Assembly: GCF_964355755.1 (NCBI RefSeq) | Contig: NC_092674.1 | Location: 8,065,001-8,129,000, forward strand | Direction: 5' to 3' | Length of the DNA stretch: 64,000 nucleotides | Origin: Antedon mediterranea | Lineage: Eukaryota > Echinodermata > Crinoidea > Comatulida > Antedonidae | In this document: positions 3,229 to 15,295 of the stretch, piece by piece | Numbering within the stretch: position 1 is the first letter of the stretch | Layout: every line of letters starts with the position of its first letter | The notes under the pieces: generated by a model | The model's database searches: none | Told to the model about the DNA's origin: nothing | What the model saw: only the letters and a program-made list of their open reading frames with translations | Program-made: the position numbers and the translations under genes

Positions 3229-3283
3229 ATGACTTTCGTTAACTATTTGTCAAACATTCTTCATCTAGTTTTAGTAATTATCA
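3229..3283 (+). CDS. Candidate signal-peptide exon of the phosphatase
   Basis: ATG at 3229 opens a hydrophobic stretch ([18 protein letters not shown]) typical of a signal peptide. A phase-1 GT after ATC A fits the phase-1 acceptor of the exon at 3595. The donor (A|GTGTGAG) is weak and an alternative CAGT|GTGAGT would break frame, so the exact boundary is unsure. Confidence 0.5.
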
Positions 3284-6200
3284 GTGTGAGTTGTCGAGTA
3301 GAGTCTTCAGGGATGTTAAACATTATACTTAGAATCTAACTTACTGTTGTACAGTAATCTATTTCAAGCCTGTGACTTTGTTTAGGTTTATTGTTTTATC
3401 AGGGGTGGATTCATACAAATAGAGTGACGATAAGCTAAAGTGAACATACACAAAGGGTGTAGCCTATTTTCAAATGAAATCATTAATAAGATGCATTTAT
3501 TTGCTCTTGCTCCTATCTTTTCATATGTTTAACTGAAGTTTGCTTGAAAGTTGATAACTGCAAAAGACTTAATTATATTTGTCTATTTTTAAAGCTCCAC
3601 TGGATATAACAGTATTTACTAACACACCCCTGACGACATCTAATAGGCTTAATGATGGGTTTGCTGGATACGCACTTCAAGACGACAAAGACATTAGAGA
3701 TTTATCAGTTGGAATATTATACAAGAATATCGATGGGAAAGATAACTTGACTTGGGCTGATACAAGGCCCGTCAGTGGTAGGTTACGTCGGACGATAGAT
3801 ATGCCAGACGGTAAAATATTTGACACAGGTAGCAGCATTGTATACCGATTATTCGACTCACACACGTATCTAGGTGTTAAGAACTTTCAAAATCTGAATG
3901 AGAGAATTGGTGTCTTCTCATTTGAAGCAAAGAAAAATAAAGTAGTAACAACTTCAGCAATTGTTTTGACATCCGCTTCTGGTTAGTATATTTCCTCATA
4001 ATATCTTTAATTCTATATATATTATTTATTGTAGAATTACAGAACTACGTTAAACGAGTAAAGCGTAAATTTAAACTAGATTTGTTGTACAATTATTACG
4101 TTTATTATTTTACAGCTAATATTGTAATGGAGTATAGAACCATAACGGTCGGTATTGGAGAGTCTGTCACTATCAATCTCAGTAAAGGTAGTGATCTCAA
4201 CGACTTACGTTGGAGACATAATTACGGTGAAGAAATATACATTCTGAGAGGTAATACGTCTGCTGTGATTGAAAACATACGAAGACAATATGATGGCGTA
4301 TATGAATGCTATACAAGTGATAGTCCTGATGGTAACCATGGTATCATGAGACTTATTGTTAGAGGTAGGCCAACGTATATTAATACTAATTTAAATTAAA
4401 CAATATATAGTAATATACCATATTGATATAATTATAAATATAAAAATAATGATAGAATAATAAATAGGCCTAACTTCACTTTTTCCTATAGTAATAATAA
4501 GAATATATTTATTCTTATAGGCCATTGTAGGCTAAATATGAATATTAATTATTTAAAAATTTACTTCATCTATTTCTATTAGCTTGTCCCTCGCCAAAAT
4601 GGAATCCTCCAGATTGTGAAATGGACTGTCCCATGTGTTATAATGGCGGAGTATGTGACGATAGGACGGGTGTCTGCATTTGTCCAGCAGGATTTAAAGG
4701 CGATGCTTGTCAAAATGGTAATACAGTTACTATATTGTACATAGAATGTGATTTACGTTGGTAAAGTCGCAAAATATTTTGATAATTGAAATAGAATATT
4801 ACTGATAGACAAAATATGTAAAATATATATTAAAAATTATATTAAATTTGTATTTGAGAAAAACATAAAACAAAACTATTATTTTTTATAATAGGTTGTG
4901 GAAATAACAACTGGGGTCGTGACTGCCTTACTGTGTGTTCTAGTGAGGGAAATTGCAGAGGAGATCTTTTATGTCCACCTGATCCAGTAGGTTGTGCATG
5001 CCAAAATGGTTTTGGAGGAAGAGATTGTAATACAGGTTAGATTTTAATTAGGCCTTATCTTTATATTTGTATGGCAAAGATTAAAAGAACAACAGTAAGA
5101 TTGTTACATACATTTTGTATTTTCGTAATATTTTGGTAATATTTTGCTGTGTTTAGTCGTAAAATTATTTTTACTTCAATCAAAAATAGCGATCAAAATC
5201 AAGGTGTGGAGTCAGTTTTGTAATGTTCCTTTAATTGCATATCATTTTAAAATATATTCATATCATTATGTTGCGCATGGTTCGATTTTGTATAGGAACT
5301 TTTGTGTTTCGTACGTCATTTAATGGTATCAAAGAAACCTCTTAAGATGTTTCGACTACCAAACAAGACATAATTTCTCATAAAAGTGTCATCATTTAAG
5401 AGCAGGACGAAATAATTATGAATTCTGAATCTAGCTCATTTATTATTACTATTACAAATATCTACCATGTCTTTAAGTGTGCGAGGATGGATACTATGGT
5501 GGTGATTGTCGGCAAAAATGTAACTGTGAGAATTGTACTCAAAATACAGGATGTACTTCCGGTTCAACGTGTTTTTCTGGTTACACTGGTGACATGTGTC
5601 TAGGTAATGACTCATCAACATGAAAATAAAGCTCAGTGAGTTAACATGAATAAACATGTTATACGTACCACCTCTCTCAGCTAGCTATTATGTACGACCC
5701 AATGGCAAACTAGAAAATTGTCTAGTAAGGTTATCAAACATTCTACACAACTTTCCACAACAAGTGGCATTTGAAGTTTCAATAACCAGAATTGCTTACT
5801 TCGCTGAATAATTTGCTGCTAAATTATATTCTATTAACCTATAGGCCAACGTTAAATTAGTTTGGAGTTGTTTTTTTTCTTTTACATTAAACAATTATTT
5901 CCCTTACTTTATATTGCTAACATAATAATTGTTTTCGTTGTTTGGAAAGAACCTGAGTCATGCGTATCCGGATATTTTGGTGTTTTGTGTAACTACCAAT
6001 GTCACTGCCAAGACTCTGAAGATTGTAATCGAGATGGAAGTTGCGATAATGGGTGTCATGATGCCTGGGCTGGACCAAAGTGCAGCATAGGTAAGAACGC
6101 ATGTTATACAGAATAATTATACTTTACATTTCGTGGTGTTTACTGAATGAATGAATAATGGAAACTAAAGTAAAGAAAGTAAAGAGAAAGACGAGTAGGA

Positions 6201-15200: not shown

Positions 15201-15295
15201 AATTACCGTTTAAATGTTTGTTTTGTATGTTGTAGGTCCAGTACAATTTTTGCTACGATGCAGCACTGTGTTATCTGAAAAAATACGAGGAATAA
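3229..15295 (+). CDS. Receptor-type protein tyrosine phosphatase with Tie-like Ig/EGF/FN3 ectodomain
   Basis: Exons, all phase-consistent: candidate signal exon 3229-3283; then 3595-3981, 4116-4364, 4583-4717, 4895-5035, 5478-5603, 5950-6090, 6365-6667, 7344-7411, 7620-7860, 8434-8733, 8896-8974, 9068-9386, 9643-9745, 9931-10007, 10346-10382, 10466-10563, 10750-10872, 11065-11231, 11532-11667, 12133-12270, 12418-12502, 12770-12837, 13430-13684, 13974-14122, 14949-15084 and 15236-15295 (stop). From exon 2 this gives about 1,373 codons. Order: two Ig-like modules, four EGF-like modules, three FN3 domains, one TM helix, a wedge region, PTP D1 and PTP D2. It should dephosphorylate phosphotyrosine at the plasma membrane. 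The EGF block ([16 protein letters not shown]) resembles Tie1/Tie2 receptors, but the intracellular part is a phosphatase, not a kinase. Polyadenylation signals AATAAA lie at 15313 and 15323. The first exon is the weakest part of the model. Confidence 0.88.
3595..4364 (+). CDS. Two Ig-like exons of the phosphatase ectodomain
   Basis: Exon 3595-3981 encodes a roughly 129-residue N-terminal module without cysteines, which looks beta-rich and Ig-like as in the first module of Tie receptors. Exon 4116-4364 encodes an Ig-like domain with [11 protein letters not shown] (core Trp) and YDGVYEC (F-strand Cys). The usual B-strand Cys partner is absent, so the canonical disulfide cannot form. Both exons are phase 1-1, as for shuffled extracellular modules. 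Confidence 0.7.
4583..6090 (+). CDS. Four phase-1 exons encoding Tie-type EGF-like repeats
   Basis: Exons 4583-4717, 4895-5035, 5478-5603 and 5950-6090 each carry 6-8 Cys in EGF/laminin-EGF spacing. Examples are [45 protein letters not shown] and [10 protein letters not shown]. The second repeat's DPxGCxC-x-GxxGxxC run is characteristic of the Tie1/Tie2 EGF block. All four are symmetrical phase 1-1 exons, the signature of exon shuffling. Confidence 0.8.
6365..8733 (+). CDS. Three FN3 domains of the phosphatase ectodomain
   Basis: FN3-1 is one exon (6365-6667: [17 protein letters not shown]). FN3-2 is split (7344-7411 and 7620-7860: [24 protein letters not shown]). FN3-3 is one exon (8434-8733: [31 protein letters not shown]). 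Each shows the FN3 core Trp or Tyr pattern. They sit between the EGF block and the TM segment, as in Tie receptors and many RPTPs. Confidence 0.75.
6766..7020. repeat. (AGY)n trinucleotide microsatellite, about 255 bp
   Basis: Near-pure AGC/AGT repeat with few AAC, CGT and GGC variants. It lies in the intron between FN3-1 and FN3-2. Reading it gives poly-Ser, but flanking exons splice around it. Confidence 0.95.
8178..8275. repeat. Dispersed repeat with CCGA tetranucleotide core, copy 1
   Basis: A GCGTGCTAAAA flank, then ACAGACCGACCGACCGACATAGTG, then a TAGAGTC tail. A related copy lies at 12605-12695 with the same order. Confidence 0.6.
8896..8974 (+). CDS. Transmembrane exon of the phosphatase
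   Basis: Encodes about 25 hydrophobic residues ([20 protein letters not shown]) followed by FRR at the cytosolic edge. Exon phase shifts from 1 to 2 here, marking the end of the shuffled extracellular module set. Confidence 0.85.
9643..12270 (+). CDS. PTP domain D1 (membrane proximal, probably catalytic)
   Basis: Motifs in order: [47 protein letters not shown] (WPD loop with its Asp), [12 protein letters not shown] (P-loop Cys and Arg) and QTKEQYTF (Q-loop). All catalytic residues are present. The phosphotyrosine recognition loop is altered: where the family has KNRYxNV/I, this has KKNQNPNV, so the aromatic Tyr is Asn. The intron after 10563 begins with GC rather than GT. Confidence 0.85.
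12418..15295 (+). CDS. PTP domain D2 (membrane distal, probably pseudocatalytic)
   Basis: Recognisable by [35 protein letters not shown] and [11 protein letters not shown]. The P-loop reads [10 protein letters not shown], so the Cys and Arg of HCX5R survive. The WPD loop is [10 protein letters not shown], with Lys replacing the general-acid Asp, and the first Q-loop Gln is replaced (VDSEVQY). RPTP D2 domains are usually inactive regulatory modules and this pattern fits. Confidence 0.82.
12605..12695. repeat. Dispersed repeat with CCAA/CCGA core, copy 2
   Basis: GCGTGCATAAT flank, CCAACCGACCGACC core, ATAGTGAGATGTAGAG tail, matching the layout of the copy near 8.2 kb. Both are intronic. Confidence 0.55.
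13748..13916. mobile_element. Palindromic MITE, family P1, copy 1
   Basis: ACGAGCGGTAACGGTAAG at the left is inverted at the right (CTTACCGTTACCGCTCGT). It lies in the intron before the D2 WPD exon. A diverged copy occurs at 29952-30090. Confidence 0.7.
14661..14688. repeat. (TA)n microsatellite
   Basis: TA dinucleotide run in the long intron before the D2 P-loop exon. Confidence 0.9.

What the first reader, a model, noticed from the sequence alone, without database searches (positions are those of the whole stretch)
3229..15295. Tie-receptor-like ectodomain on a tandem-domain tyrosine phosphatase
The ectodomain (Ig-like, Ig-like, four EGF of the Tie type including [16 protein letters not shown], three FN3) follows the Tie1/Tie2 order. 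The cytoplasmic part, however, is PTP D1-D2, not a kinase. All extracellular modules sit on phase-1 exons and the phase switches at the TM exon, which is what exon shuffling between a Tie-like gene and an RPTP would leave. A receptor that recognises Tie-type ligands but removes phosphate would be an antagonist design. Similar architectures may already exist as unnamed predictions in echinoderms.
Basis: partly seen in the sequence, partly recalled or inferred. Interest (0 to 1): 0.78.

Follow-up and report, generated by a model that had tools for sequence, protein, structure and literature searches.

The report
Tie-type ectodomain on a receptor phosphatase
An animal gene joins the outside part of a Tie-type receptor, normally a kinase, to an inside part of the kind that removes phosphate, and it belongs to a large tandem family whose outer domains vary, which suggests a set of recognition receptors.

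Summary
The gene is real. 27 exons (window 3229-15295, +) give 1391 aa: leader, a domain of unknown fold, Ig, 4 EGF, 3 FN3, TM, two PTP domains. A sibling 11 kb upstream keeps 27 of 27 exons and an open frame, so ectodomain and phosphatase are very probably one gene. EGF1 and EGF2 match Tie EGF1 and EGF2 by position, above 26 of 26 MEGF repeats (tree 100/99); Ig and FN3-1 profiles pick the same-position modules of the genome's own Tie kinase gene. Corrections: the first domain is not shown to be Ig; four EGFs, not three; Tie's third Ig is absent; FN3-2 is split by a phase-0 intron. Of 68 related EGF1 exons picked from a capped list, 24 have PTP exons downstream. Between the two neighbours exon 2 differs at about 70 nonsynonymous sites and D1 at none; across the family EGF2 and EGF3 vary too. 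Here D1 reads KNQN for KNRY, D2 WPK for WPD. Most likely a diversified recognition receptor with phosphatase output; a simple Tie antagonist is less likely. Function is inferred.

The parts
3229..3283 (+). exon 1, start codon and hydrophobic leader, ends in phase 1 (donor GTGTGA; a phase-0 donor two bases on is possible)
   Evidence: the sibling's projected exon 1 has donor GTTTGA at the same place
3595..3981 (+). exon 2, distal domain of unknown fold, the most variable exon by column entropy
   Evidence: no Ig match
3609..3650 (+). variable cluster 1 of exon 2 (residues 24-37), pooled dN/dS 1.02
   Evidence: cluster chosen after seeing the variability
3759..3803 (+). variable cluster 2 of exon 2 (residues 74-88), pooled dN/dS 0.51, pN and pS both high
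   Evidence: chosen after the fact
3828..3863 (+). variable cluster 3 of exon 2 (residues 97-108), pooled dN/dS 0.49, pN and pS both high
   Evidence: chosen after the fact
3876..3902 (+). variable cluster 4 of exon 2 (residues 113-121), pooled dN/dS 0.97
   Evidence: chosen after the fact
4116..4364 (+). exon 3, Ig domain ending RLIVR, matches Ig2 of the genome's Tie kinase gene
4583..4717 (+). exon 4, EGF1, Tie EGF1 type
4895..5035 (+). exon 5, EGF2 with [10 protein letters not shown], Tie EGF2 type
5478..5603 (+). exon 6, EGF3, generic by score
5950..6090 (+). exon 7, EGF4, generic by score, one more EGF than Tie
6365..6667 (+). exon 8, FN3-1, matches FN3-1 of the genome's Tie kinase gene
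7344..7411 (+). exon 9, first part of FN3-2 (phase 1 to 0)
7620..7860 (+). exon 10, rest of FN3-2 (phase 0 to 1)
8434..8733 (+). exon 11, FN3-3
8896..8974 (+). exon 12, transmembrane segment (by eye), phase 1 to 2
9068..9386 (+). exon 13, juxtamembrane with several tyrosine sites (YEGV, YTDP, YNNT, YTPI, by eye)
9643..12270 (+). exons 14-21, PTP D1
9718..9729 (+). KNQN at the place of the KNRY pTyr loop of D1
11116..11124 (+). WPD of D1, intact
11224..11553 (+). [10 protein letters not shown] loop of D1, split by intron 19
12418..15295 (+). exons 22-27, PTP D2, with WPK in place of WPD and [10 protein letters not shown] kept

Best explanation
A single-pass receptor made by joining a Tie-type ectodomain to a tandem-domain receptor phosphatase, later multiplied in tandem. 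Shown: intact gene model repeated in a sibling, Tie-type Ig/EGF1/EGF2/FN3-1 modules, two PTP domains, many paralogues, a Tie kinase gene in the same genome, and outer domains (exon 2 first, then EGF2 and EGF3) that vary more than the Ig, EGF1 and D1. Inferred: the variable outer parts contact diverse ligands; the rest is a scaffold; contact changes clustering and so phosphatase access to tyrosine-phosphorylated partners (Tie kinase, PTP-less paralogues, or its own juxtamembrane tyrosines). In this copy D1 may be weak or act as a binding module because its pTyr loop is changed. The confidence is for the whole; for the anatomy alone it is about 0.93.
For: One gene: (27 of 27 exons in the sibling, 1393 aa open). 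Tie type. PTP. Family. Tie kinase gene; kinase pieces Tie2 1.8e-93 against FGFR1 2.3e-51; Ig_Tie2_1 6.3e-5. A second RPTP region at C6:7.22-7.25 Mb has an Ig_Tie2_1-like domain (0.0012), Ig2, Tie EGF1/EGF2, a third Ig, FN3 and PTP exons on one strand. Variability: window against sibling 69.6 nonsynonymous differences in exon 2 and 0 in 258 D1 codons; 21 of 34 sites with entropy of 2.3 bits or more lie in exon 2 (my count); its variable columns cluster, 0 of 10000 permutations.
Against: No RNA, ligand, expression or enzyme data. Positive selection is not shown: median dN/dS in exon 2 is 0.51 and 0 of 171 pairs exceed 1. Exon 2 is not alone in varying: median dN is 0.28 there, 0.24 in exon 5 and 0.26 in exon 6, mean entropy 1.13, 0.88 and 1.03. 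The fold of exon 2 is unknown (AlphaFold without alignment, pLDDT 32). 44 of 68 EGF1 anchors have no listed PTP exon downstream; 2 of 20 ectodomains (L017, L027) hold stops or unreadable codons in the aligned exons. Contactin heads the PDB list for exon 3 and Tie2 is not among the 60 shown. Seen from the Tie gene's EGF2, one MEGF repeat (102) scores above window EGF2 (100).
Confidence: 0.5

Rival explanations
1. Dedicated Tie antagonist: it binds the same angiopoietin-like ligands as the Tie kinase and removes phosphate from it.
For: Shared Ig, EGF1, EGF2 and FN3-1 types; 5 of 5 other paralogues whose D1 was read keep WPD and HCX5R; a Tie kinase gene exists.
Against: Many copies with divergent outer domains; exon 2 does not match the Tie gene's Ig1; KNQN in this copy. 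From memory, the angiopoietin site of Tie2 lies in Ig2; the exon 3 match to it is moderate.
Confidence: 0.15
2. Members of a decaying array with little function left.
For: A neighbour with exons 1-8 only (about C5:8060850-8064362) followed by retroelement sequence (zf-RVT); a copy at C5:7870157 with FN3 exons but no PTP exon in the next 10 kb; D1 loop change and D2 WPK. Between the neighbours some exons (5, 9, 11, 12, 25) show no excess of synonymous change, on small counts.
Against: Two full copies with intact frames and splice sites; family median dN/dS 0.21-0.51 in exons 2-7; D1 0 nonsynonymous against 5 synonymous differences.
Confidence: 0.12
3. The EGF block is of generic MEGF type and only looks like Tie.
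For: A MEGF control of the same genome also has Tie2 as best PDB hit, 82 bits, near the 88 bits of the window EGF block, so PDB rank proves nothing. EGF3 and EGF4 prefer MEGF repeats. The Tie gene's EGF2 scores one MEGF repeat (102) above window EGF2 (100).
Against: Window EGF1 and EGF2 each prefer their Tie counterparts to 26 of 26 MEGF repeats kept from one frame; the EGF2 signature, a pattern that I wrote after seeing the family, occurs 0 times in that frame; tree 100/99, with some long MEGF branches.
Confidence: 0.05
4. Two adjacent genes read as one.
For: None found; RNA was not available.
Against: The sibling has the same 27 exons in order; ectodomain then PTP on one strand at 24 of 68 anchors.
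Confidence: 0.02

Closest known systems
Tie1/Tie2 receptor tyrosine kinases (including sea urchin SpTie1/2, seen only as a reference entry)
   Same: Ig2, EGF1, EGF2 with its DPxGCxC signature, FN3-1, three FN3; phase-1 module edges in the genome's own Tie gene
   Different: Two PTP domains instead of a kinase; four EGFs; no third Ig; first domain unlike Tie Ig1
Tandem-domain receptor protein tyrosine phosphatases
   Same: TM then D1-D2; best PDB matches PTPRA 3.7e-119, PTPRE 4e-113, LAR types about 2e-111, too close to name a subtype
   Different: I know of no vertebrate RPTP with a Tie EGF block (recalled); KNQN in D1; expanded tandem family
Expanded variable recognition receptors of invertebrates (recalled: FREPs, Alr, SpTransformer)
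   Same: Tandem arrays with variable outer domains
   Different: No allelic or immune data here; different domains

Membership tests
Tie receptor tyrosine kinase | Tyrosine kinase domain | tested here: not met
   Cytoplasmic part is two PTP domains
Tie receptor tyrosine kinase | EGF1 and EGF2 of Tie type | tested here: met
Tie receptor tyrosine kinase | Ig_Tie2_1 first domain | tested here: not met
   Exon 2: no Ig_Tie2_1 match in 19 rows scanned, hhalign 0.5%; the genome search listed two places, neither in the window
Tie receptor tyrosine kinase | Ig2 before the EGFs | tested here: met
   Nine-row profile of exon 3 and relatives ranks the Tie gene's Ig2 first of 181 ORFs, 1.8e-9, next 0.11; PDB search did not favour Tie2
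Tie receptor tyrosine kinase | Third Ig between EGFs and FN3 | tested here: not met
   EGF4 exon 7 is followed by FN3 exon 8
Tandem-domain RPTP | One TM, then two PTP domains | tested here: met
   (TM by eye)
Tandem-domain RPTP | Active-type D1: KNRY, WPD, HCX5R, Q loop | tested here: inconclusive
   WPD, HCX5R and VQTKEQY present; KNRY is KNQN
Tandem-domain RPTP | Phosphatase activity | not testable with these tools
   Needs an enzyme assay
Variable immune or allorecognition receptor | Tandem family with variable outer domains | tested here: met
   between paralogues of one assembly
Variable immune or allorecognition receptor | Polymorphism between individuals; response to self, non-self or microbes | not testable with these tools
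   One assembly, no expression data

The most novel reading that the evidence does not exclude
A Tie-type ectodomain captured by a receptor phosphatase and expanded into a repertoire of phosphatase-coupled recognition receptors with a variable tip, beside PTP-less paralogues with tyrosine-rich tails and one Tie kinase: a paired-receptor system for immune or self recognition built on the Tie scaffold.
Probability: 0.27. Interest if true: 0.85.

Novelty: new variant of a known kind. Interest (0 to 1): 0.6.

Why it matters
It puts one ectodomain type on enzymes of opposite sense in the same genome, and in a tandem family in which two neighbours share an identical D1 but differ widely in their outermost exon. 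That gives a concrete gene set for asking whether this animal has a phosphatase-based recognition repertoire, and how kinase and phosphatase receptors come to share ectodomains.

Tried and rejected
PDB rank as proof of Tie identity: dropped after a MEGF control of the same genome also gave Tie2 first; replaced by position-matched scores, signature and tree. Exon 2 as Tie Ig1: not supported; AlphaFold of exon 2 without an alignment, pLDDT 32, useless. Placing the animal by its mitochondrial code: no COX1 match in the assembly, which may have gaps or withheld stretches; echinoderm, perhaps crinoid, is a guess from memory and is not tested. Positive selection in exon 2: not shown.

Rows left out: the exon 2 alignment A1 holds 18 of the 20 ectodomains with exon 2 plus one C3 relative (L017 and C4 left out); profile A2 holds 6 of 19 array exon 3 peptides plus three relatives; A3 holds 4 of 5 array exon 8 peptides plus three relatives; MEGF repeats outside 36-56 residues were dropped before the count of 26; C4 was left out of the pooled dN/dS (19 genes). 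The tree used 8 of 21 array members plus C6:7, C6:26 and C8.

Papers: asked for the architecture, family or domain mix; for background. Hits: 3, 0, 1, 0, 0, 108 (12 listed, three of four terms) and 0. I saw listings with starts of abstracts, and passages of PMC13409769 and PMC10396339 (a reference entry only). Nothing listed described this architecture; most subscription papers are not in that library.
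Full report
WHAT IS THERE. The window is C5:8065001-8129000 of a 354 Mb assembly, plainly an animal. On the + strand 27 exons from 3229 to 15295 splice into 4176 bases and 1391 residues. I placed the edges by hand: 26 of 26 acceptors AG, 25 of 26 donors GT, exon 17 GC. Pfam finds two PTP stretches (4.5e-125) and three fn3 (1.3e-11) on the spliced protein; single exons give Ig_3 (0.0033, under its cut-off) and EGF_2 (8.7e-6, over it). Order: leader, exon 2 domain of unknown fold, Ig, four EGF, three FN3, TM, tyrosine-rich juxtamembrane, D1, D2.

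ONE GENE. A neighbour at C5:8043576-8057198, ending 11 kb before the window gene, aligns to 27 of 27 exons in order, with projected edges at AG and GT, the same GC donor after exon 17, and an open frame of 1393 residues. Exons 2 and 8 differ in length by multiples of three. D1 has 0 nonsynonymous and 5 synonymous differences over 258 codons. Two transcripts are unlikely, but no RNA could be examined.

IS IT TIE. The ectodomain hits Tie2 at 6.1e-34 and the best non-Tie chain at 4.6e-8. A control showed that this alone is not diagnostic: MEGF repeats of the same genome also have Tie2 as best PDB hit (82 bits; window EGF block alone 88; Tie kinase gene of the genome 120). Better tests: exon 4 scores 150 with the own Tie gene's EGF1 and 128 with Tie2 EGF1, against 110 for the best of 26 MEGF repeats; exon 5 scores 113 with Tie2 EGF2 and 100 with the own EGF2, against 88.5; exons 6 and 7 prefer MEGF repeats, as Tie2 EGF3 does. 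Against: seen from the own Tie gene's EGF2, one MEGF repeat (102) scores above exon 5 (100), and from Tie2 EGF2 the margin is 113 to 105.5. A DPxGCxC signature, written after seeing the family, is in EGF2 of Tie2, of the own Tie gene and of four of four family members tested, and 0 times in the MEGF frame. A tree of EGF1+EGF2 puts 13 Tie-type rows on one side and 13 MEGF pairs on the other (100/99); several MEGF branches are long, and the RPTP family against the two Tie rows has 82/86, not settled. A profile of exon 3 and relatives, built without Tie, ranks the own Tie gene's Ig2 first of 181 ORFs (1.8e-9, next 0.11); a profile of exon 8 and relatives ranks its FN3-1 first (5.5e-8, next 0.016). 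In the PDB the exon 3 profile hits contactin first and Tie2 is not among the 60 shown of 897; for exon 8 a Tie2 FN3 chain ranks fifth of 148.

THE TIE KINASE GENE. C6:15.07-15.11 Mb holds on one strand an Ig_Tie2_1-like domain (6.3e-5, 1.3 bits under Pfam's cut-off), Ig2, three EGF, further Ig-like frames, FN3, a TM and kinase exons (read by eye). Kinase pieces joined by eye hit Tie2 at 1.8e-93 and FGFR1 at 2.3e-51. The edges printed (Ig2 end, EGF1-3, FN3-1 to FN3-3) read as phase 1, as in the window gene.

A FAMILY. I picked 68 EGF1 exons from it; 24 have a listed PTP exon on the same strand before the next picked EGF1: 18 of 31 on C5, 5 of 21 on C6, 1 of 1 on C1, 0 of 15 elsewhere. Absences are provisional because the lists are capped. 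Four places without PTP were read: C4 shows a TM and short tail, C6:26.24 an Ig and FN3 gene with no PTP before the next gene, C3 a tyrosine-rich tail, C8 C-type-lectin-like frames (names by eye). At C6:7.22-7.25 Mb there are, on one strand, an Ig_Tie2_1-like domain (0.0012, under the cut-off), Ig2, Tie EGF1/2, extra EGFs, a third Ig, FN3 and PTP exons: the nearest thing seen to a whole Tie ectodomain on an RPTP. That it is one gene is inferred from order and strand.

VARIABILITY. Over 20 ectodomains, the window's included, mean column entropy is 1.13 in exon 2, then 1.03 in exon 6, 0.88 in exon 5, 0.65 in exon 7, 0.54 in exon 3 and 0.43 in exon 4; 21 of 34 sites at 2.3 bits or more lie in exon 2 (my count). 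Median dN is 0.28 in exon 2, 0.26 in exon 6 and 0.24 in exon 5, against 0.08 in exons 3 and 4. Median dN/dS is 0.51 in exon 2 (0 of 171 pairs over 1), 0.29 in exon 3, 0.21 to 0.47 in exons 4-7 (8 pairs over 1 in all). Variable columns of exon 2 cluster (lag-1 correlation 0.46, 0 of 10000 permutations). Between the two neighbours exon 2 has 24.4 synonymous and 69.6 nonsynonymous differences, exons 14-22 have 6 and 0. Synonymous divergence is higher in exons 2-4 than in most later exons (exon 26 excepted), which points to mosaic exchange among copies. Two of 20 ectodomains (L017, L027) hold stops or unreadable codons in the aligned part.

CATALYSIS. D1 has [13 protein letters not shown] and VQTKEQY. 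The KNRY loop is KNQN here and in the sibling, KNRY in L033 and L036 and KNRF in L035, KNRF by eye in the C6:7.2 gene; it was not read in L034. WPD is kept in 7 of 7 genes where exon 19 of D1 was read. D2 has WPK and keeps HCX5R. The C1 copy matched juxtamembrane and D2 exons but no D1 exon between them.

WORKING MODEL. Shown: architecture, Tie-type modules, family, variability. Inferred: variable outer parts bind varied partners, the rest is scaffold, and the phosphatase acts on nearby tyrosine-phosphorylated receptors. A starfish proteomics paper speaks of a Tie-2 kinase and an RPTP in coelomocytes (PMC13409769, passages); that is context, not evidence for this gene.

NOVELTY. The searches named under Tried and rejected listed nothing that describes this architecture; unnamed predictions may well exist in databases not held here.

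Noticed in passing
about C5:8060850-8064362 (L002, L003) and window 1-3228: A further ectodomain copy with exons 1-8 and no later exon matched before the window gene; window 2-481 has a zf-RVT match, and reverse-transcriptase-like frames at 1634-2516 (by eye) had no Pfam match. Its exon 8 seems to end in phase 1, so it could in principle splice to exon 9 of the window gene.
   Followed up: partly
L006 2437-2823 (C3:13.16 Mb): PTP-less family member with a tyrosine-rich tail resembling ITIM/ITSM motifs (by eye).
   Followed up: no
L009 3192-5177 (C8:15.76 Mb): Family member whose FN3 exons are followed by C-type-lectin-like frames (by eye).
   Followed up: no
L012 (C1:4878500-4888499): Paralogue with D2 exons but no D1 exon matched.
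   Followed up: partly
window 37268-37609 + and 42313-44082 -: A BCS1 N-terminal frame (1.2e-16) and an Alg9-like mannosyltransferase frame (1.6e-51) beyond the end of the array.
   Followed up: partly
window 45309-46250 +: 313-residue frame with a hydrophobic segment (by eye) and a 99-base tandem repeat of 3.2 copies; no Pfam match.
   Followed up: partly
window 6767-6990: AGC/AGT-rich simple repeat inside intron 8.
   Followed up: no
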